Below, in pieces: positions 4,755 through 56,137 of a stretch of 64,000 nt of DNA. The DNA is from Bacteroidales bacterium. Lineage in GTDB: Bacteria > Bacteroidota > Bacteroidia > Bacteroidales > Tenuifilaceae. The stretch is taken from NCBI GenBank assembly GCA_013141385.1, contig JABFRB010000018.1, forward strand, positions 62,001 through 126,000. Reading direction: 5' to 3'. The position numbers were made by a program, and so were the translations under genes. Numbering within the stretch: position 1 is the stretch's first letter; each line of letters opens with the position of its first letter. The notes beneath the pieces are model-generated. The model saw only the letters and a program-made list of their open reading frames with translations, did no database searches and had not been told where the DNA came from.

Positions 4755-5501
4755 ATGAAATTACTTGAAGGAAAAACTGGGCTTATTACTGGTGCTGCCC
4801 GAGGAATTGGTAGAGCAATAGCTCTTGCTTATGCAAAGGAGGGAGCAAATGTTGCATTTACTGACATTGCCGCTGATGATAATTTTAAGAATTTGGAAAA
4901 AGAGCTTTTAGTATTCGGTGTTAAAGCTAAGGGGTATGTTTCTGATGCTAGCAATTTTGAATCATCACAGAAAATGGTTGATGATATTATTGCTGACTTT
5001 GGAAGGATTGATATACTTGTAAATAATGCTGGAATTACTCGCGATAATCTGATAATGAGAATGACGGAAGAGCAGTGGGATCTAGTAATAAGAGTTAATT
5101 TAAAATCTGTTTTTAATCTCACTAAGGCAGTACAGAAATATATGTTAAAGCAGAAGAATGGCTCGATTATTAATATGAGCTCAGTTGTAGGTGTTTCTGG
5201 AAATGCTGGACAATCAAATTATTCTGCATCGAAAGCTGGCATTATTGGATTTACTAAATCAATTGCTAAAGAATTAGGTTCAAGAAATATTCGTAGTAAT
5301 GCGATTGCACCAGGTTTCATTATCACTGAAATGACACATCAATTGCCAGATGATGTTCGCAATGAATGGGTTAAAAAAATTCCTCTTCAACGCGGGGGTA
5401 CTCCTGAAGATGTCGCAAACGCTTGTATTTTTTTAGGATCAGACCTTTCATCTTATGTTAGCGGGCAGGTGCTTAATGTATGTGGAGCAATGAATACCTA
5501 A
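4755..5501 (+). CDS. fabG: 3-oxoacyl-[acyl-carrier-protein] reductase FabG
   Basis: Short-chain dehydrogenase that reduces 3-oxoacyl-ACP to 3-hydroxyacyl-ACP with NADPH in cytosolic fatty acid elongation. Seen: the Rossmann nucleotide motif GAARGIG at 13-19, NNAG at 90-93, and the catalytic Ser143, Tyr156 and Lys160, spaced as in E. coli FabG (S138, Y151, K155). Length 248 matches the family. It stands alone between its own promoter and a strong terminator, not in a fab operon. Other SDR reductases share these motifs, but FabG is the closest pattern. Confidence 0.88.
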   Translation: MKLLEGKTGLITGAARGIGRAIALAYAKEGANVAFTDIAADDNFKNLEKELLVFGVKAKGYVSDASNFESSQKMVDDIIADFGRIDILVNNAGITRDNLIMRMTEEQWDLVIRVNLKSVFNLTKAVQKYMLKQKNGSIINMSSVVGVSGNAGQSNYSASKAGIIGFTKSIAKELGSRNIRSNAIAPGFIITEMTHQLPDDVRNEWVKKIPLQRGGTPEDVANACIFLGSDLSSYVSGQVLNVCGAMNT

Positions 5502-5527
5502 AAAATTTTATATTTAATAAACAATAA

Positions 5528-5552
5528 ACCATCCGAATGGATGGTTTTTGTT
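5528..5552 (+). terminator. Rho-independent terminator after fabG
   Basis: Perfect hairpin AACCATCC-GAAT-GGATGGTT followed by TTTGTTTT, 27 bp after the fabG stop and just before the next gene. Confidence 0.85.
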
Positions 5553-5570
5553 TTAACTAACCATCAGTAA

Positions 5571-6542
5571 ATGAAAATAAATAAAAACTTGATTTACATT
5601 CTTACATTAGGATTTACTTCGTGTATTCCATATAAAGAAATTGATATACAATATATTAAAGAACCTGAAATTAAAATATCATCCGATTTCAACAAACCGT
5701 TAATTCTAATTAATTTTTATCAAAATAAGAGAAATAGTAAAAAGGATAGATTTGATTATGCAATAGATAGTTTAGCTTCGGAAGAAGCTGTCATATCATT
5801 AAAAGAAAATCTCCAAAAATCTCCATTATATGAAGATTTAGATATCTCAATTCAAAGACATCAACGTATAGATAGTTCTAGATATATTAAACCCTTAACA
5901 TGGAGCGCTGTAAATATTATTGCTAATAAAGATAGTGCAGATCTAGTTATTTCGTTAGAATACATTAAAATCATTGAATTAACGGATTCCTATAAAACTA
6001 TAGAGAATCAAATTGAATGCTATTATGGATATTTAAAAGTTCCATTATACTGCTATTGGAGAGTTTATGATATCCACAAAAAGCAGATTTTGAATGGATT
6101 TCTTTACCGCGATACTCTAATGTGGGATACTACAGATTGGACTCCAGTTACTGTGGGGAATCAACTTCCAGGATTCTTTAATGCTTCTGCTTATGCTGGA
6201 AGTGATTGTGGGGAGAAATATGCTCAAAAAATTGCTCCAGTATGGTCAGATGATAAAAGAAAATTTTTTCATACTGGATCTAAAGAAATGGAAAAAGCAA
6301 GCGAATATGTAGTCAAAGAACAATGGATGGAAGCAGCCTTAGAATGGCAGAAGGTTTTTGCTCTAAACAATAGAAAACTTAATGCTAAGGCCGCATTTAA
6401 TCTCGCACTTGCAAGCGAAATGCTTGGAAAATTCGATCTTTCATTGGAATGGCTATTTAAAGCCAAAAAATTCTATCCCTTATCCGAAATTGAAAACTAT
6501 CAACGTGCTGTTAACGAAAGAATTGCTAACAAAGTAAAGTAG
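5571..6542 (+). CDS. DUF6340 family lipoprotein with C-terminal TPR
   Basis: The 323-residue product starts with a lipoprotein-type signal peptide (LGFTSC, Cys18 as probable lipidated residue), so it is expected to sit in the membrane facing the periplasm. The middle part (about 25-220) carries the pattern of the Bacteroidota family DUF6340: an opening INFYQNK strand, then DLVISLEYIK and a conserved YWRVYD segment. The last 90 residues form about two TPR-like helix pairs (WMEAALEWQKVFAL, AAFNLALASEMLGKFDLSLEWLFKA). Function is unknown. It precedes the M48 protease with a 22-bp gap, so the two may be cotranscribed. Confidence 0.7.
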   Translation: MKINKNLIYILTLGFTSCIPYKEIDIQYIKEPEIKISSDFNKPLILINFYQNKRNSKKDRFDYAIDSLASEEAVISLKENLQKSPLYEDLDISIQRHQRIDSSRYIKPLTWSAVNIIANKDSADLVISLEYIKIIELTDSYKTIENQIECYYGYLKVPLYCYWRVYDIHKKQILNGFLYRDTLMWDTTDWTPVTVGNQLPGFFNASAYAGSDCGEKYAQKIAPVWSDDKRKFFHTGSKEMEKASEYVVKEQWMEAALEWQKVFALNNRKLNAKAAFNLALASEMLGKFDLSLEWLFKAKKFYPLSEIENYQRAVNERIANKVK

Positions 6543-48895: not shown

Positions 48896-51748
48896 TTAAC
48901 CCACAGGAGGCATTGGCCTATCGATATAACTTTTCTGCATTGCTGGGGGTAAGGTGACGTAAGGCATCTGGAATCCGCCTACCCGAACGCTTACATGTTC
49001 GTATTTCTTTAGCTCCTTTTTGGCTTCTGGGTCACCATTCCTGTTTTTTTCGCATAAATCGTAGATTAGGCCTAATAATTTCTTATCAGAAATGGTAATG
49101 GTCATCATATTACCTTCGTTAAGCATAAAGTTCTGGATAACGGATTTAATGATTTCAGGGCCATTCTTCTCTAAGTCCCTTTCTTCGAGACATAGGTCGG
49201 TGATTACCCCTCCAGCAAATCGATTAAGTCCTATTGTTTTAAATGATGATAGAAGATGTCCAATACTAAACTTTGTAGTACCCACCATTGGCGCAAAATT
49301 TCGGGCAATTGGATCGCCAGCTTTGTTGCGGTCGGCAGAGGCGGCATTTCCACCACCGAAAATGTCGAACAGCTCAAATGTCCCCATTCCAGCGGTAATG
49401 TGTATCATAAATTTATCTCCGAATTCTTCTTTTAACGATTTTCCGGCATAACCAGCCAAGGCTCTTAGCGATTTAATTCTCTCCTCATCCCCTTCCTTGG
49501 GAGGATATAAAAATACTTCTTGAGCTAATTTTTGCGATTCCTTAACACATTCGTAAAATGTGTTTAGCATCCATTGCATCATCTCTACCGATTCTTTATC
49601 GTTGTTACCAAATTTGGGAGAATCGGTTTGGAATTTGAGTTTTATCCTGTTGAACTTTTCTTGCTGGACTTTATCAGTAGAAGTGTAACTACATCTGAAG
49701 GCATCCAAAACATCTGCCAATTCAAATTCCTTTTTATCGTACACCCATTTCTTTATCGCTGTTAATGTGTTTACTGTATCGGGAACTGCTGCAGGAATAA
49801 TTCCAGCAAGTTTATAATCGGCTCCACCCCAGGTTTTATCTCTCCCTGTCTTCATACAACCCTTTAGTAAAGCGGAATAGAGCGGATCTGGATTAACTGC
49901 CTGATCGATTAGGTACAACATGTGAATGCTTAATGCCGAATTATCGGTAAAAAATTTGATATGCTTTCTAAAGATTTTCTTAAACCCTTCAAAGTCTATG
50001 CTCGTGTCCACTGCTGGCAAAGGGGTTTCGTAGGTTAGCTTCTGCCCTCTTAGCAATATTGGATTTGAACTGAGCGTAGCACCCCCGTTTAAAGCACATT
50101 CCAGCGCAGTAAGCATATTGAACATCCTAAAGGTCCAGTCGCATGAGCCATTGAGTAGTGGTTCCCAGCAACCATCAATTACATAATCCCTTGCCTCTTC
50201 CAATGGGATATCAGAGAATTTACTCAAGGCTGGAACAAGTACTTCATCATTCCCAATAACCGGCATTCCATTTTTTGTTTCGTACAAGCACTCAGCAATT
50301 GCATTCAAATATTTGTTGGACTCTTTACTACCATCCATTTGCTCTTTATAAATCCTTGCATTCAAGGTTGGAGTATAAAGTTTGGTTTTCTGGAATGCTT
50401 TAAGGATAAGGTAGGTGCAATCGTTAACCGCGTTTTTACCATCACGGGTTTGTCCTCCTATAATGATATTTTGTAGGAATTCGTTTGATTCCGACCACTG
50501 ATCGAGTGCTACTGGTATGGTAAGTAGGTTTGAGCCAAAATCAAGGTGATCTTGCTTTACAAAAGTGGTTGAATCGAGGATTAGTCGCTCGGCACATTTG
50601 ATCAAAAAGCATTCGAAGAGCTCCTTCTGTTTTTCATGCTCTTCCTTTTTATAGTAGGGTTGCAAAACCTGATCGAGCCGCCCTAATGATAGCTGGCTCA
50701 TGCTGCTGTGCAGGGCAAGGTGAAAGAAATAGATGGATTGAAGAGCTTCGTAGAATGTGCTTGCGGGTTTTGCAGGAACTTTACTGCAAATTCTACTTAT
50801 TTCTATCAATTCGGATTTACGAATAGGGTCTTTTTCAATAATGCTTAACTCTCTGGCTAATTTTGAGAATTGACCTGCATAATCAATAACAGCCTGACAG
50901 CTAATTTTTACGGCAGTGTAAAAATCTTGCCTGTTATGTAGAATATTTCTGTTTTCAGCTATTATTCCTCTAATCTGCTTTAAATGTGGAAAACTAGCCG
51001 TTTTTTGCTTATTCTTGCGTGTTTTGGAAATATCACTGAAATTGGCGTGAATATGTGTTTCTAAAATTTCAAACAGATCTTTCAGATTTGAATCATAAGC
51101 TTTGGTTCTATTGCCTTTGCTTTCATCATGCTCTTCGAAAATCTCCTTTAAGCTTTCAATAGTTTCGGTTGCTTTGCCACTTGATTTGAGGTGGTGTATT
51201 TCTTTTAAAAATGTATCATCGCCTTCAACTTTACTACAATAGTTTAAGAGATTATTGTAGTGATTAATTTTATGCTCGGTTGCGCTAAGCTCCTTATTAC
51301 AATCTGCGATAATACCATCGAGGCCTTTCTCAAGCATTACATCGTAGTTTACCGAATCGTGCCCAAATAAACCCATTTCGGATTTAGTAGATACGGAGGT
51401 AATATCCAATTCGCTAGGGGTAAGATAAATAGGGAAAGATTTTCCCAAACCCAACGATCCTAGGGTTATAACACCAACTATCAACTCACCATCTCGAATT
51501 TGGTAGTGAGGATTATTGCCTTTAAATAGATGCTTATTTGTCATGGCTTTGAGGATCTCTTCTATAGCCAATGCTCGGCGAACAATTACTGGCTTATTGG
51601 GGTGATCAATGCCAATTTTTTTAAACATGTCCTTGGTAAACCATTCCGATGAACGATCAGCCCAAGCACGTTTTTCCATAGCCTTGATCAATTCTGTAAT
51701 CCTGTAGGTTGATCCAATAATGATTTCTTCCTTAATTAATTCTGCCAT
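48896..51748 (-). CDS. Glycyl radical enzyme of the PFL/dehydratase/decarboxylase superfamily, subtype unassigned
   Basis: A 950-residue enzyme that carries a stable glycyl radical made by the neighbouring activase. Seen: catalytic Cys527 in DGCWEPLL (Cys-Trp-Glu, where diol dehydratase-type and decarboxylase-type relatives have Cys-x-Glu), and radical Gly925 in RVGGFQ, 25 residues from the C-terminus. An unusual charged helical stretch at about 155-260 makes it longer than typical members (about 780-900). The Cys-x-Glu motif excludes pyruvate formate-lyase (Cys-Cys). Glycerol dehydratase, choline lyase and isethionate lyase usually have GCVE, and arylacetate decarboxylases also have Cys-x-Glu, so the substrate is open. 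The ATG at 51748 has an AGGAG site 8 bp upstream and is preferred over an ATG 11 codons earlier. Confidence 0.85.
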   Translation of the reverse strand: MAELIKEEIIIGSTYRITELIKAMEKRAWADRSSEWFTKDMFKKIGIDHPNKPVIVRRALAIEEILKAMTNKHLFKGNNPHYQIRDGELIVGVITLGSLGLGKSFPIYLTPSELDITSVSTKSEMGLFGHDSVNYDVMLEKGLDGIIADCNKELSATEHKINHYNNLLNYCSKVEGDDTFLKEIHHLKSSGKATETIESLKEIFEEHDESKGNRTKAYDSNLKDLFEILETHIHANFSDISKTRKNKQKTASFPHLKQIRGIIAENRNILHNRQDFYTAVKISCQAVIDYAGQFSKLARELSIIEKDPIRKSELIEISRICSKVPAKPASTFYEALQSIYFFHLALHSSMSQLSLGRLDQVLQPYYKKEEHEKQKELFECFLIKCAERLILDSTTFVKQDHLDFGSNLLTIPVALDQWSESNEFLQNIIIGGQTRDGKNAVNDCTYLILKAFQKTKLYTPTLNARIYKEQMDGSKESNKYLNAIAECLYETKNGMPVIGNDEVLVPALSKFSDIPLEEARDYVIDGCWEPLLNGSCDWTFRMFNMLTALECALNGGATLSSNPILLRGQKLTYETPLPAVDTSIDFEGFKKIFRKHIKFFTDNSALSIHMLYLIDQAVNPDPLYSALLKGCMKTGRDKTWGGADYKLAGIIPAAVPDTVNTLTAIKKWVYDKKEFELADVLDAFRCSYTSTDKVQQEKFNRIKLKFQTDSPKFGNNDKESVEMMQWMLNTFYECVKESQKLAQEVFLYPPKEGDEERIKSLRALAGYAGKSLKEEFGDKFMIHITAGMGTFELFDIFGGGNAASADRNKAGDPIARNFAPMVGTTKFSIGHLLSSFKTIGLNRFAGGVITDLCLEERDLEKNGPEIIKSVIQNFMLNEGNMMTITISDKKLLGLIYDLCEKNRNGDPEAKKELKKYEHVSVRVGGFQMPYVTLPPAMQKSYIDRPMPPVG

Positions 51749-51848
51749 AATGATGTCTCCTATTTTTGGTTTATATTTCAATATCGTTTAGTTAATAGTC
51801 CAAAATGATTATCTGTAATAATACCTAATGAAGAATAAATAATCCAAA

Positions 51849-51916
51849 TTGTCATTGCTGCAAATGCAGGAATCTATCTCTTTTTAGGGATTCCGGGACT
51901 TCGCCCGGAATGACAA
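51849..51916. repeat. MITE- or REP-like palindromic element between activase and glycyl radical enzyme genes
   Basis: A 68-bp element bounded by inverted ends TTGTCATT (51849-51856) and AATGACAA (51909-51916), with an inner hairpin ATTCCGGG-ACTTCG-CCCGGAAT. It is of the kind often scattered through bacterial genomes. It lies inside the gap of the two-gene unit and could end or process the transcript. Confidence 0.7.
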
Positions 51917-51974
51917 TGGATTGAGGTTTGCTTATAGGCATAATAAAGTAAGTGCATATTTTATTTTTATCGTT

Positions 51975-52886
51975 TTAAGCAACAATTTTCGCTTTGATTC
52001 CTGCTGAGGTAAAATTATCTTTAACCCCAATTAACTCCTCTTTACTTGGCACTTGAGTACCTTTCAAGGGGTATTCTATGCCCATTGCTTTGTAATAGTT
52101 TTCGGAATAGGGATTGTACGGGAGAATTTCAATTGATTTTATTCTATTCGAACGCATCACCTCAATTATCATATCATAAGCAATTTGGGTATTAGTATAT
52201 CCGGGAATTATAGGTGTTCTAATGGTAATTTGATCGGGATTATGTGCGGCTAATAGCTCAATATTCGATAGAAGTTGCTTCCAATCTTCTACTTTATCGG
52301 TGCGAGAAGGACGTAACCCAATTAGCCAATGGTTGACATAAGGCATCAACTCCTCAATATGCTTTTTATTTAGGGTTGCAGATGTTTCAACGGTAGTGTG
52401 AATACCATCTGCTGAGCAAATTTTCAGCAATTCCACCAAGGCTTTGGATTGTACCAGCGGATCGCCCCCGGATACTGTTAAGCCCCCAATGCCTTTTAGT
52501 AAATCCAGCTGAGGTTTTAGTAGTTGATATAGCTCGCTTACCTCTATATCTTTACCAGCAAACCCCAAAGCGCTAGTGTTCCACTTGTTAATATCGGATG
52601 ATGGGCAAATTTCAATACATGCACCACACTGATTACATTGGCTATGATTAACAAGATGAATTCCATTTGATACTTCGTGTACCCCATTGGGGCAAATATC
52701 CACACAACAGCCGCATTTTGTACAACGGCTTTCGAAGTAGAGTAAAGGCGATGATGTTTCCCATGAATGGGGAGAATGACACCAAGGACATCTTAAATTG
52801 CATCCTAACAGGTATAATACAACTCTTGTTCCGGGGCCATCAACCGATGAGAACCATGAAATATCGAAATACTTTAATATATTCAT
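51975..52886 (-). CDS. Glycyl radical enzyme activase (radical SAM, two ferredoxin-type clusters)
   Basis: A 303-residue radical SAM enzyme that abstracts a hydrogen from the glycine of its partner. Seen: SVDGPGTRVVLYLLGCNLRC with the CxxxCxxC cysteines Cys29, Cys33 and Cys36, then two ferredoxin-like 4Cys motifs (Cys55/58/61/65 and Cys84/87/90/94), and the SAM-binding LTVSGGDPLVQ. The two added clusters are typical of activases of non-PFL glycyl radical enzymes. It precedes the enzyme gene on the same strand, 226 bp upstream, and both are probably transcribed together across the palindromic element. Confidence 0.92.
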   Translation of the reverse strand: MNILKYFDISWFSSVDGPGTRVVLYLLGCNLRCPWCHSPHSWETSSPLLYFESRCTKCGCCVDICPNGVHEVSNGIHLVNHSQCNQCGACIEICPSSDINKWNTSALGFAGKDIEVSELYQLLKPQLDLLKGIGGLTVSGGDPLVQSKALVELLKICSADGIHTTVETSATLNKKHIEELMPYVNHWLIGLRPSRTDKVEDWKQLLSNIELLAAHNPDQITIRTPIIPGYTNTQIAYDMIIEVMRSNRIKSIEILPYNPYSENYYKAMGIEYPLKGTQVPSKEELIGVKDNFTSAGIKAKIVA

Positions 52887-53380: not shown

Positions 53381-53474
53381 GAAGATTTTTCCCCAGCACC
53401 CCAAAAAAAAATTACCCGACCGCTAGGGTTTTTAGACTCGAAAGTATCTGATGTAGGTAAAAGGTAGCTAAACG

Positions 53475-53511
53475 CTGCTAGGTTCTTCGACCGCTAGCAG
53501 GTTTTCTTATA
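53475..53511 (+). promoter_or_regulatory. Hairpin in the leader of precursor gene 1
   Basis: CTGCTAG (53475-53481) pairs with CTAGCAG (53494-53500), with an inner GGT/ACC and followed by GTTTTCTT. The same element precedes precursor 2 at 54164-54193, where the inner pairs differ (GTCC/GGAC) but still pair, which supports a real RNA structure. It may be a terminator or attenuator. Confidence 0.55.
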
Positions 53512-53612
53512 AAATATCTATATATCTAAAACCTATAAACTATGTAACAAAGCTAATATGGAGTATGCCGAAAATCCTAAATAGAGTAGGCAACAATTTA
53601 ATTTCTATAATT

Positions 53613-53750
53613 ATGCGTACTAAAAAATTTATTAAAATTTCGAAGGTGAAGAAACTTAAAGATTCTGACCTTAAGAATATTAAAGGTGGTGTAGTAGTGT
53701 ATTCAATAAATCCAATATATACAATTGATCCTACAGAATTAGCCAACTAA
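53613..53750 (+). CDS. RiPP precursor peptide 1, GG-leader Bacteroidota type
   Basis: A 45-residue peptide. The leader (1-26) is MRTKKFIKISKVKKLKDSDL followed by KNIKGG, the Lys-rich KL-x-x-x-x-L-K-x-I-x-GG type leader of Bacteroidota natural product precursors. Cleavage after Gly26 would give a 19-residue core VVVYSINPIYTIDPTELAN. The core holds a six-residue repeat, YSINPI then YTIDPT. It has no Cys and no Ser-rich stretch, so lanthipeptide chemistry is unlikely. A radical SAM/SPASM enzyme is encoded 850 bp downstream. An ATG 16 codons upstream is in frame, but the leader pattern and the paralogue fix the start at 53613. Confidence 0.82.
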   Translation: MRTKKFIKISKVKKLKDSDLKNIKGGVVVYSINPIYTIDPTELAN

Positions 53751-53761
53751 TTGACATTCGG

Positions 53762-53825
53762 CAGGTGTTTACCTAATAAGATGTAAAAACCTATCTATTG
53801 GATAGCACCTGTCATTTCTATTCAA
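53762..53825 (+). terminator. Hairpin after precursor gene 1
   Basis: Outer arms CAGGTG (53762-53767) and CACCTG (53806-53811), with an inner CTATC-TATTG-GATAG stem, followed by TCATTTCTATTC. The same GCAGGTG/CACCTGC structure follows precursor 2. It could end most transcripts after the precursor. Confidence 0.6.
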
Positions 53826-54365
53826 AAATCTATACACCACATCTAGCAGCAATAACCCTCCTAAAAGAGTAGTAACCTTAACTGGGTTAACCAATCCAAA
53901 ACCTTCTAATTTCAATTATGTTAACACTTGTGCTGTATGAACAAGTGTTAGAAAATTCATTCTCAATTAGTTGTTGCATATTCCTTTGTGTGTTTTGTGA
54001 CTACTTTGTGTTTTTTGTGGAATAACAATTACACGAAGGTTCACAAAGCATTACACAAAGTTACACGAAGATTTTTTTCCAGCACCTCAAAAAAAAGAAT
54101 TACCCGACCTTCTAGGGTTTTTAGATTCAGAAGCGTCTGAACTAGGAAAAAGATAGATAAACGCTACTAGGTCCTACGGACGCTAGCAGGTTTCCCCCTC
54201 AGTATACTTTTATAGAATATCTATATATTTAAAACAAAACGCCATGGACATAAGCTAAAAACCTGTTTTTTTATAAATTTAAAGTCTAGCAAACATGGAA
54301 TAAACTTACTATGGAGTAAGCCGAAAATCCCAAATAGAGTAGGCAACAATTTAATTTTTACCGTT

Positions 54366-54506
54366 ATGAAAACTAAAAAATTTATTAAAATTTCGAAGGT
54401 GAAGAAACTTAAAGATTCTGACCTTAAAAACATTAAAGGTGGTGTATTCTTATTGTATTCGATACATCCATTGTATGGAATTGATCCTACTGAATTAACC
54501 GAGTAA
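54366..54506 (+). CDS. RiPP precursor peptide 2, GG-leader Bacteroidota type
   Basis: A 46-residue paralogue of precursor 1. The leader MKTKKFIKISKVKKLKDSDL + KNIKGG differs from precursor 1 at one residue only (Lys2 for Arg2). The 20-residue core VFLLYSIHPLYGIDPTELTE keeps YSI-x-P-x-Y-x-IDPTEL and varies elsewhere, again giving a repeat YSIHPL/YGIDPT. The stop at 54504 is followed by a strong hairpin and then, 95 bp on, by the radical SAM gene. Leader conservation with core drift is what one expects of natural product precursors. Confidence 0.82.
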   Translation: MKTKKFIKISKVKKLKDSDLKNIKGGVFLLYSIHPLYGIDPTELTE

Positions 54507-54516
54507 TTAACATTCG

Positions 54517-54580
54517 GCAGGTGTCTAGCTAATAATGTGTTATACACTATTTATTAGGTAGCACCTGCTACTTCTATTCA
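54517..54580 (+). promoter_or_regulatory. Long hairpin between precursor 2 and the radical SAM gene
   Basis: GCAGGTG (54517-54523) pairs with CACCTGC (54562-54568). Inside, CTAGCTAATAA pairs with TTATTAGGTAG. The tail is TACTTCTATTC. It lies 34 bp before the SAM enzyme start and is a good candidate for partial termination that keeps precursor above enzyme levels. Confidence 0.6.
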
Positions 54581-54601
54581 AAAACCTAAAAATTTGTGAT
54601 G

Positions 54602-56137
54602 ATGGAATATCAACCAACAGCTGCTGTTTGGGAAATCACGTTTGCATGTAATATGCGCTGCAAGCATTGCGGTTCGAGCTGTACCACAACCAAACCCGAT
54701 GAGCTAACTACCGATGAAGGTCTAAAACTATGCGATCAGATAGGTGCGCTAAAACTCGAATACATTACGCTATCAGGCGGGGAGCCGCTGCTACGCAAGG
54801 ATTGGCATATCCTTGCAAAAAGGATACGCGAAAATGGCGTTATACCGAATATGATTACCAATGGCTGGCTTTTGACTGAAACTGATGTTAAGAATGCAAA
54901 GGAAGCGGGTATATCAAATATTGCAATCAGTTTGGATGGGGTAAAAGAGACGCATGATTTCATGAGGATGCAAGGATCCTATGACAGGATTATTTCAGGT
55001 TTGCAGCTTCTAAAGAAAGGTAAAGTTCCATCGTCAATTATTACAACTGTTAATAAAAAAAATCTTCACGAATTACCCAAGATATACGAAGTTATAAAGG
55101 CTAATGGCGTTAGGAATTGGCAGCTACAGTATGCCATGCCAATGGGAAATCTTATAGAAAACGCCGATTTGGTAATTGATCCATCGGAAATAGAAATAAT
55201 GTTGGACTACCTTCTTAAATTCTCAAAAGAAAATATAATTAGAATAGACCTTGCGGATTGTGTTGGATATTATAACGACAAAGAGCTGGAGATAAGGTCA
55301 CATAATCAGGGAAATCCCGAAGATCATTTTTGGACAGGCTGCCTCGCGGGTAAAAGAGTATTTGGCATTAGGTATAACGGGGATGTTGTGGGCTGCACAT
55401 CACTAAGGGATAACGATTTTATTGAAGATAATATTCGCAATCGCTCGCTTATAGATATATGGAACGATCCTAAATCGTTCGCTTGGAACAGGGGGCTTAC
55501 AAGGAAAGACCTAACAGGGTTTTGCGCTACGTGTCAGTATGGAAATTACTGCCTTGCCGGTTGCTCAGTTCTAAAATTTACTACAGGAAAGAAATTAAAG
55601 GAAAATCAATATTGTACTTATAGGGTTGCTGCAGAGAATGATTGTAATGAGATTAAGAATATCAAGGATAATAAGAAGTTACTGGAGCTTTCGGCAGAAG
55701 CTATTTCAGAAGAAAACTACCAATTTGCTGATGCTTGCTTAAACGCTATTTATGAGTGCGATCAAAAAAATATCGATATTTTAAACCAATTAGGCTTTGT
55801 TAACTATAAGCTCGAAAACTACGAGAAATCGTTAATGTTCAACGAACGGGTATTAAGTATTGACCCAAAGAATGCGTACGCATTGAAAGGGAAAGGGATT
55901 TGTCTGGCAAGCACGGATATGGTTCAGGAGGGAATTAGCTGCCTTGAGAGGTCAATCGAACTTGCTGATGAGAATTTTCTCGATCCTTACTTCGACCTCT
56001 CCTTAGTGTATTATAATTGCAAAGATTATAAAAAGGCGAAAGAGGTGTTAATGGAAGGACGAAAAAAATCTAAAGAGTTTAAGGATAGTTCCGATGAGCT
56101 ATACCAATTGATCGAGGAGGAACTTGGTAATTCTTGA
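54602..56137 (+). CDS. Radical SAM/SPASM peptide-modifying enzyme with C-terminal TPR domain
   Basis: A 511-residue enzyme. Seen: radical SAM motif CNMRCKHC (Cys16, Cys20, Cys23), SAM-binding SGGEPLLR at 58-65, and a SPASM/twitch region with Cys247, Cys265, Cys308, Cys311, Cys317, Cys321 and Cys338, enough for two extra Fe-S clusters. Residues about 355-495 are TPR-like helix pairs (NQLGFVNYKLENYEKSLMFNERVL, ALKGKGICLASTDMVQEGI, FDLSLVYYNCKDYKKAKEVL). TPR could hold the substrate or a partner, as no separate PqqD-type leader-binding domain is seen. GTG at 54596 and ATG at 54599 are alternative starts. It follows two precursor genes, so its role is core modification; the bond made is unknown. 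Confidence 0.87.
   Translation: MEYQPTAAVWEITFACNMRCKHCGSSCTTTKPDELTTDEGLKLCDQIGALKLEYITLSGGEPLLRKDWHILAKRIRENGVIPNMITNGWLLTETDVKNAKEAGISNIAISLDGVKETHDFMRMQGSYDRIISGLQLLKKGKVPSSIITTVNKKNLHELPKIYEVIKANGVRNWQLQYAMPMGNLIENADLVIDPSEIEIMLDYLLKFSKENIIRIDLADCVGYYNDKELEIRSHNQGNPEDHFWTGCLAGKRVFGIRYNGDVVGCTSLRDNDFIEDNIRNRSLIDIWNDPKSFAWNRGLTRKDLTGFCATCQYGNYCLAGCSVLKFTTGKKLKENQYCTYRVAAENDCNEIKNIKDNKKLLELSAEAISEENYQFADACLNAIYECDQKNIDILNQLGFVNYKLENYEKSLMFNERVLSIDPKNAYALKGKGICLASTDMVQEGISCLERSIELADENFLDPYFDLSLVYYNCKDYKKAKEVLMEGRKKSKEFKDSSDELYQLIEEELGNS

What the first reader, a model, noticed from the sequence alone, without database searches (positions are those of the whole stretch)
53381..56137. RiPP locus with two tandem GG-leader precursors, a Y-x-I-x-P repeat core, and a SPASM radical SAM enzyme with TPR tail
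Seen: two precursors with leaders identical but for one residue and cores that differ but keep YSIxPxYxIDPTEL, followed by a radical SAM/SPASM protein. Each core carries a six-residue repeat (YSINPI/YTIDPT; YSIHPL/YGIDPT). Established: KL-x-x-x-x-L-K-x-I-x-GG leaders mark Bacteroidota natural product precursors that are cut by C39-type peptidases, and SPASM enzymes modify peptide cores. Inference: the repeated Tyr or Ile next to Pro are the modified positions. Neither a cyclophane nor an epimerisation motif that I know fits this core exactly, and the TPR tail in place of a PqqD-type leader-binding domain is unusual. No transporter/peptidase is adjacent, so export must be encoded elsewhere or shared.
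Basis: partly seen in the sequence, partly recalled or inferred. Interest (0 to 1): 0.86.

Follow-up and report, generated by a model that had tools for sequence, protein, structure and literature searches.

The report
Likely spliceotide locus with TPR enzyme
Two tiny peptide genes of a Bacteroidales-type bacterium sit beside an enzyme that probably cuts a piece of a tyrosine out of the peptide backbone and rejoins the ends, a known but unusual chemistry, here with an extra repeat domain on the enzyme and mostly non-standard cutting sites.

Summary
In detail: two tandem GG-leader precursors (53613-53750, 54366-54506) precede a radical SAM/SPASM enzyme with a TPR tail (54596-56137). The likely chemistry can be named. 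The enzyme's best NCBIfam model is TIGR04103 (the group I recall as PlpX's), though far below cut-off, and it is 34% identical to a Nostoc enzyme annotated as such. Relatives that keep the TPR tail occur in Clostridia, Spirochaetales, Desulfobacterales and others; 25 of 36 loci have a small ORF with Y-G-[IVLM]...P on the enzyme's strand, 0 of 36 on the other. [quoted passage not shown] The window's Y-x-I-x-P repeat is this motif with Ser or Thr for Gly at 3 of 4 sites. Ten of 21 relatives' loci inspected carry a C39 peptidase-ABC exporter; this genome has three strong C39 matches in transporter-sized frames elsewhere. No PlpY-like partner was found; the TPR tail may replace it. Splicing is inferred, not shown. 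The main genome survey (Scott et al. 2022) was not readable, so earlier description cannot be excluded. In passing: both precursor genes, and another GG-peptide gene beside a related enzyme, carry the orphan regulatory RNA DUF805b.

The parts
53558..53592 (+). DUF805b RNA (RF02914), orphan cis-regulatory element, 5' UTR of precursor 1
   Evidence: cmscan 47.8 bits, gathering 35.6
53613..53750 (+). precursor 1: GG leader (53613-53690) and core VVVYSINPIYTIDPTELAN (sites VYSINP, IYTIDP)
   Evidence: weak TIGR04149 leader match E 0.016, below cut-off
53760..53813 (+). predicted stem-loop after the precursor 1 stop codon, no T-run
   Evidence: single-sequence fold of 53751-53845, -21.4 kcal/mol
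54311..54345 (+). DUF805b RNA, 5' UTR of precursor 2
   Evidence: cmscan 45.8 bits
54366..54506 (+). precursor 2: GG leader (54366-54443) and core VFLLYSIHPLYGIDPTELTE (sites LYSIHP, LYGIDP)
54516..54569 (+). predicted stem-loop between precursor 2 and the enzyme gene
   Evidence: single-sequence fold of 54507-54601, -27.2 kcal/mol
54596..56137 (+). radical SAM/SPASM enzyme with C-terminal TPR tail, splicease-like
   Evidence: Pfam; NCBIfam best TIGR04103, 241 bits; AlphaFold2 pLDDT 91.3, pTM 0.85; blastp to a Nostoc TIGR04103 enzyme 34%, E 5e-69

Best explanation
It is a spliceotide-like RiPP locus. The precursors are made with a GG leader (shown as sequence). [quoted passage not shown] most likely at LYG of P2, less certain at YS and YT). 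A C39 peptidase-ABC transporter encoded elsewhere in the genome then cuts after GG and exports the product (inferred). Protease inhibition is the likeliest activity, since papers report it for other spliceotides.
For: NCBIfam: TIGR04103 is the enzyme's best model, TIGR03913 second; both match 36 of 36 TPR-type members at E <= 1e-20. Blastp to the Nostoc plasmid enzyme annotated as TIGR04103: 34% over 348 aa, E 5e-69, 220 bits, against 55-74 bits for six other SPASM-type enzymes of the same genome (a seventh, the C2 paralogue, scores 300). That Nostoc locus has a Nif11-leader precursor ending RGSIALYGLPPELF and a 71-aa ORF after the enzyme. PlpX is placed in IPR026482 and with PlpY acts on Xaa-Tyr-Gly (passages of PMC11002830); its natural sites are MYG and LYG (passages of PMC10533398). 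YG[IVLM].{1,3}P in small ORFs: 25 of 36 loci on the enzyme's strand, 0 of 36 on the other, 1.44 expected from shuffled ORFs. Curated precursors: 81 of 92 Tyr sites are Y-G. C39-ABC exporters in 10 of 21 loci looked at, C39, ABC membrane and ATPase domains confirmed in 10 of 10; three strong C39 matches in frames of 718-733 aa in this genome. SPASM-like Cys set 247, 265, 308, 311, 317, 321, 338.
Against: Only 1 of the window's 4 sites is Y-G. The enzyme scores 241 bits on TIGR04103, cut-off 725, and other families are not far behind (TIGR04133 191, heme b synthase AhbD 186 bits). No PlpY homologue: tblastn of the Nostoc 71-aa protein found, besides itself, nothing better than E 0.089, a weak test. 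In 11 of 36 loci the strict pattern found no precursor: L021 and L030 have looser candidates, L056's overlaps the enzyme frame and was missed by the rule, L010 is cut by its contig end, and in L012, L017, L022, L029, L033, L036 and L037 I recognised none. The table was picked by a Tyr motif, so its percentages lean to it. TPR-tailed rows are not one clade: the label needs 4 changes on the tree. No mass data exist.
Confidence: 0.73

Rival explanations
1. The enzyme splices, but only at the Y-G site of P2; the YS and YT sites are not processed, so P1 is an unspliced or decaying paralogue. (A narrower form of the best explanation, so the two odds overlap.)
For: Y-G is 81 of 92 curated sites and is the motif that papers name for PlpXY (passages).
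Against: P1 keeps an intact frame, leader and UTR RNA. Sites without Gly make up 7 of 80 outside the four Bacteroidales loci, and in L016, L023 and L027 they stand in a precursor that also has Y-G. Both P1 sites keep I-x-P.
Confidence: 0.4
2. A different radical modification at Tyr (epimerisation, a cross-link, dehydrogenation), the enzyme being only a distant relative of spliceases.
For: Identity to the Nostoc TIGR04103 enzyme is only 34%; fold matches are general (PqqE, SkfB, SuiB, anSME).
Against: The Nostoc TIGR04103 locus, the first of two Azospirillum TIGR03913-linked peptides and the peptides of non-TPR relatives also carry Y-G (Aureibacter: two Y-A, one Y-G); most cores keep Y-G and no constant second partner residue.
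Confidence: 0.19
3. Not a RiPP: the small ORFs are chance or regulatory peptides and the enzyme acts on something else.
For: The ORFs are short and no exporter is adjacent.
Against: Tandem duplicate with conserved leader, congeners with the same leader and other cores, strand-specific motif in 25 of 36 loci, C39 exporters beside relatives.
Confidence: 0.04

Closest known systems
Spliceotides: PlpX/PlpY of Pleurocapsa sp. PCC 7319
   Same: radical SAM/SPASM enzyme of the same broad group (by way of TIGR04103; PlpX itself was not compared); L-Y-G site; several sites per precursor
   Different: no PlpY-type partner found, TPR tail instead; short GG leader instead of nitrile-hydratase- or Nif11-like leader; 3 of 4 sites with Ser or Thr for Gly; chemistry untested
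NCBIfam TIGR03913, GDL-motif peptide-associated maturase
   Same: second-best model; of two small peptides beside the Azospirillum enzyme one carries R-P-Y-G
   Different: the other Azospirillum peptide has no Y-G; no GG leader seen; enzyme without TPR match in the alignment
TIGR04149 rSAM-modified GG peptides of Bacteroidota
   Same: leader style and GG site, E 0.014-0.016
   Different: 15 bits against a cut-off of 25; the five over-cut-off TIGR04149 peptides of this genome have Cys-rich cores, none here
TPR-tailed relatives in Clostridia and other phyla (no family name found)
   Same: 39-48% identity over the aligned length, tail included
   Different: many have several repeats (PLYGIxP, up to six in one precursor), TDEELMEMTGG-like or NHLP leaders, and in ten of 21 an exporter nearby

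Membership tests
Spliceotides (class) | alpha-keto-beta-amino acid formed by tyramine excision | not testable with these tools
   needs mass spectrometry; definition from passages of PMC10533398 and PMC11002830
Spliceotides (class) | X-Y-G motif in the precursor core | tested here: met
   LYG in P2; the other three sites are Y-S, Y-T, Y-S
PlpXY-type splicease | NCBIfam TIGR04103 equivalog score at or above its cut-off | tested here: not met
   241 bits, cut-off 725, though the best model. That TIGR04103 and PlpX's IPR026482 are the same entry is recalled; a paper search for both found only PMC11002830, which names IPR026482 alone
PlpXY-type splicease | PlpY (truncated RRE) partner gene | tested here: inconclusive
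   none seen beside the enzyme; tblastn with a putative Nostoc PlpY found no match at E <= 0.05 other than itself; a 71-aa query is a weak probe
Radical SAM/SPASM peptide maturases | CxxxCxxC motif and SPASM cysteines | tested here: met
   Cys 16, 20, 23 and 247, 265, 308, 311, 317, 321, 338; PF04055 and PF13186 over cut-off
TIGR04149 rSAM-modified RiPP | score at or above 25 bits | tested here: not met
   15.1 and 15.3 bits
C39-processed GG peptides | C39 peptidase in the genome | tested here: met
   six C39 matches over cut-off, three strong ones in frames of 718-733 aa; ABC domains of these were not scanned, none is adjacent, so the pairing is inferred

The most novel reading that the evidence does not exclude
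TPR-tailed spliceases work without PlpY: the TPR tail recognises the short L-x-D-x-x-L-x-x-[I/M/V]-x-GG end of otherwise different leaders, and in this Bacteroidales lineage the enzyme has moved beyond Y-G to splice at Y-S and Y-T, giving one-protein backbone splicing at non-Gly sites, with the precursors under the orphan RNA DUF805b.
Probability: 0.3. Interest if true: 0.78.

Novelty: new variant of a known kind. Interest (0 to 1): 0.56.

Why it matters
If right, a one-protein splicease would be a handier tool than PlpXY for placing ketoamide handles in proteins, and sites at Y-S and Y-T would widen what can be spliced. It also gives a checkable product hypothesis (a loss of 135.07 Da per site) for an otherwise nameless locus, and ties an orphan regulatory RNA to RiPP precursor genes in this genus.

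Tried and rejected
Viral contigs: 2 stretches matched a pattern, none confirmed. Plasmid records: 471 with a match, none covering 80% of the query. Solved structures: no hit is named as a splicease; by sequence, besides engineered TPR proteins, SkfB, cytosylglucuronate decarboxylase and PqqE; by fold PqqE, SkfB, SuiB and anSME. The idea that DUF805b RNA marks RiPP genes in general was tested and weakened: 13 of 21 elements over the cut-off in three congeneric genomes precede a GG-leader peptide (read by eye), but among 29 high-scoring elements from 29 other genomes of the phylum only about five next ORFs look like GG- or NHLP-leader peptides (L162, L172, L173, L183, L185), and of 25 TIGR04149-type hits checked in the three genomes (of 35 listed) 2 carry it, both already among the 13; three of the 25 gave no readable ORF. 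The C2 paralogue was considered as part of the same pathway and set aside: its neighbouring peptides have no Y-G. Searches for more cores of the window's lineage found hardly any; G297 has an enzyme but no precursor that I recognised in the 1.4 kb on either side held.

Full report
What is there. The window holds two tandem genes for 45- and 46-residue peptides with nearly identical GG leaders and different cores, followed by a radical SAM/SPASM enzyme. The peptide units are a duplication that includes flanking DNA. In the leader 73 of 78 bases agree and one residue differs; of the 94 bases before the start 75 agree. The enzyme models well as a radical SAM barrel and SPASM region followed by helices from about residue 357 to 510 (pLDDT 91.3, pTM 0.85); the first strand is residues 7-11, so there is no room for an N-terminal RRE.

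What the enzyme is. NCBIfam's best model is TIGR04103, nif11-class maturase 3 (241 bits, cut-off 725), then TIGR03913 (232), TIGR04133 (191) and heme b synthase (186). The first two match 36 of 36 aligned members at E <= 1e-20. These 36 are the window and 35 of the 79 loci, chosen because the match runs through most of the tail; the rest, being shorter, cut off or weak, were dropped, so the tail in this set is by choice. A Nostoc plasmid carries an enzyme annotated as TIGR04103, with a Nif11-leader precursor whose core is RGSIALYGLPPELF and a 71-aa ORF after it. The window enzyme is 34% identical to it (220 bits, E 5e-69), against 55-74 bits for six other SPASM-type enzymes of its own genome; the paralogue on contig C2 scores 300 bits. 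In a 68-row tree the window and three Bacteroidales relatives form a clade (100/99) apart from the Clostridia rows. The TPR-tailed rows as a whole are not one clade (4 changes), and the TIGR04103/TIGR03913 rows fall among them; deep branches are long and the root is a midpoint, so deep order is unsure.

What the peptides are. Beside relatives of the enzyme, small ORFs repeat L-Y-G-I-x-P or K-Y-G-V-x-P, up to six times in one precursor. With one strict pattern, YG[IVLM].{1,3}P, 25 of 36 loci (the window by P2 included) have it in a small ORF on the enzyme's strand, none of 36 on the opposite strand, and shuffled ORFs predict 1.44 loci. A hand-curated set of 38 precursors from 29 loci (the script's 30 counts the window twice) has 92 sites: 81 Y-G, 6 Y-A, 3 Y-S, 1 Y-T, 1 Y-D; Leu precedes Tyr in 46, and by a rough count Pro follows nearby in 83. 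That set was picked by a Tyr motif and two of its loci (L039 cut off, L041 shortened) lack a full tail, so it describes; one search tests. The window has Y-S, Y-T, Y-S, Y-G. Outside the four Bacteroidales loci 7 of 80 sites lack Gly, so the window is extreme but not alone. Some relatives without the tail have Y-G peptides too: FGPVMYGTG beside the Agathobacter enzyme, PIYGV/PLYGV or PLYGI/PLYGV beside two Methanosarcina enzymes; beside others I recognised none.

What it probably does. Passages of two papers say that PlpX with PlpY removes tyramine from Xaa-Tyr-Gly and leaves an alpha-ketoamide, naturally at MYG and LYG, with loss of C8H9NO (PMC10533398; PMC11002830). In the first, tags with PIRP-[L/G]-Y-G-LPI were tried in FtsZ: two GYG variants were accepted, the other tags, both LYG ones included, were not, so context matters. 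Passages of PMC10373908 say that the reaction is widespread in bacteria and gives protease inhibitors, citing Scott et al. 2022; a passage of PMC11117315 says the latter too. Kinship plus motif make splicing the best reading; it is not shown for this clade. The leaders differ (short Bacteroidota GG leader; TDEELMEMTGG; an NHLP leader, 66.9 bits) but share L-x-D-x-x-L-x-x-[I/M/V]-x-GG by eye, a candidate for what the tail binds; conserved tail residues include Q374, N406, N414, Y426, K429 and D465. That is inference.

Export. Of 21 loci inspected (chosen mainly because a precursor had been seen), 10 have a C39 peptidase-ABC transporter: in seven its frame begins within about 120 bases of the end of the enzyme frame, in two it lies upstream, in one downstream on the other strand; Pfam confirms the three domains in 10 of 10. 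The window's genome has six C39 matches over the cut-off, three strong ones in frames of 718-733 aa on other contigs.

Distribution. Among 60 near relatives (the window's own genome counted) 3 match at E <= 1e-60: G000, G002 and G004; G001 (67% complete) and G003 of the same genus do not. In larger draws 2 of 393 genomes of the order and 2 of 395 of the class match at E <= 1e-90, the same two, one being the window's own. TIGR04103 itself at E <= 1e-55: 9 of 296 genomes of the phylum, 0 over its cut-off. Further Bacteroidota rows are Saccharicrinis (L037) and a Bacteroidales assembly with two copies (L010, L039). Patchy presence suggests horizontal gain; this was not tested.

Regulation, seen in passing. 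Each precursor gene carries a DUF805b RNA (RF02914) ending about 20 bases before the start codon. Three congeneric genomes hold 21 elements over the cut-off; in 13 the next ORF is a GG-leader peptide, among them all five Y-x-I/V-type precursors of these genomes and those beside the C2-type paralogues of G000 and G002. Across the phylum the next genes are diverse. In 43 elements a complement of the three bases after GAAAA occurs in the nine bases before the second helix in 43, with nine different triplets, and the variable pair of the second helix is standard in 38 of 43, with five pair types: a pseudoknot, by a simple count. Ligand and action are unknown. A search for DUF805 listed 8 papers, none with a title on the RNA; the paper that I recall as its source is not held.

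Novelty. Paper searches on splicease, spliceotide, tyramine, TPR, tetratricopeptide, TIGR04103 and IPR026482 gave no title, abstract start or passage that I saw describing a TPR-tailed splicease or Y-S/Y-T sites. A mining study of Bacteroidales RiPP loci mentions tetratricopeptide-like genes and has no word beginning with 'splice' (PMC10352776). The key survey, Scott et al. 2022, is not held and may list this clade. NCBIfam has no model over its cut-off for the enzyme or for the peptides' cores. I therefore rate it a new variant of a known kind, with the chemistry inferred.

Noticed in passing
window 53558-53592 and 54311-54345; L150, L145, L131, L133, L137: DUF805b orphan cis-regulatory RNA directly before both precursor genes and before other GG-leader peptide genes of the genus; 13 of 21 elements in three genomes.
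   Followed up: partly
window 53760-53813 and 54516-54569; L011 5290-5384 and 5907-6001; L009 808-902: Predicted stem-loop with a GCAGGTG/CACCTGC-type stem after each of five precursor stop codons in three genomes, inner stem varying.
   Followed up: partly
L118 about 5000-6473 (G000:C2) and L119 4571-6044 (G002:C24): A second RiPP-like pair: GG peptides with cores GFIYPPLSGIIAMDLPE and IFVPPGHTIGIIATDLPE beside a 39-40% paralogue of the enzyme with a shorter tail, under DUF805b; no Y-G, so the chemistry may differ.
   Followed up: partly
G000:C1:40976-42408: Five neighbouring Cys-rich TIGR04149 GG peptides, without a DUF805b match by pattern.
   Followed up: no
L102 5639-7460: Nostoc plasmid spliceotide-type locus: Nif11 precursor, TIGR04103 enzyme and a 71-aa possible PlpY.
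   Followed up: partly
L055, L059: Two Methanosarcina assemblies have a Y-G peptide (PIYGVVRPLYGVPLE; PLYGIVRPLYGVPLK) near a related enzyme without TPR tail.
   Followed up: no
window 48896-52886: Pyruvate-formate-lyase-like enzyme of 961 aa and a radical SAM protein with 4Fe-4S motifs, probably its activase, upstream on the other strand.
   Followed up: no
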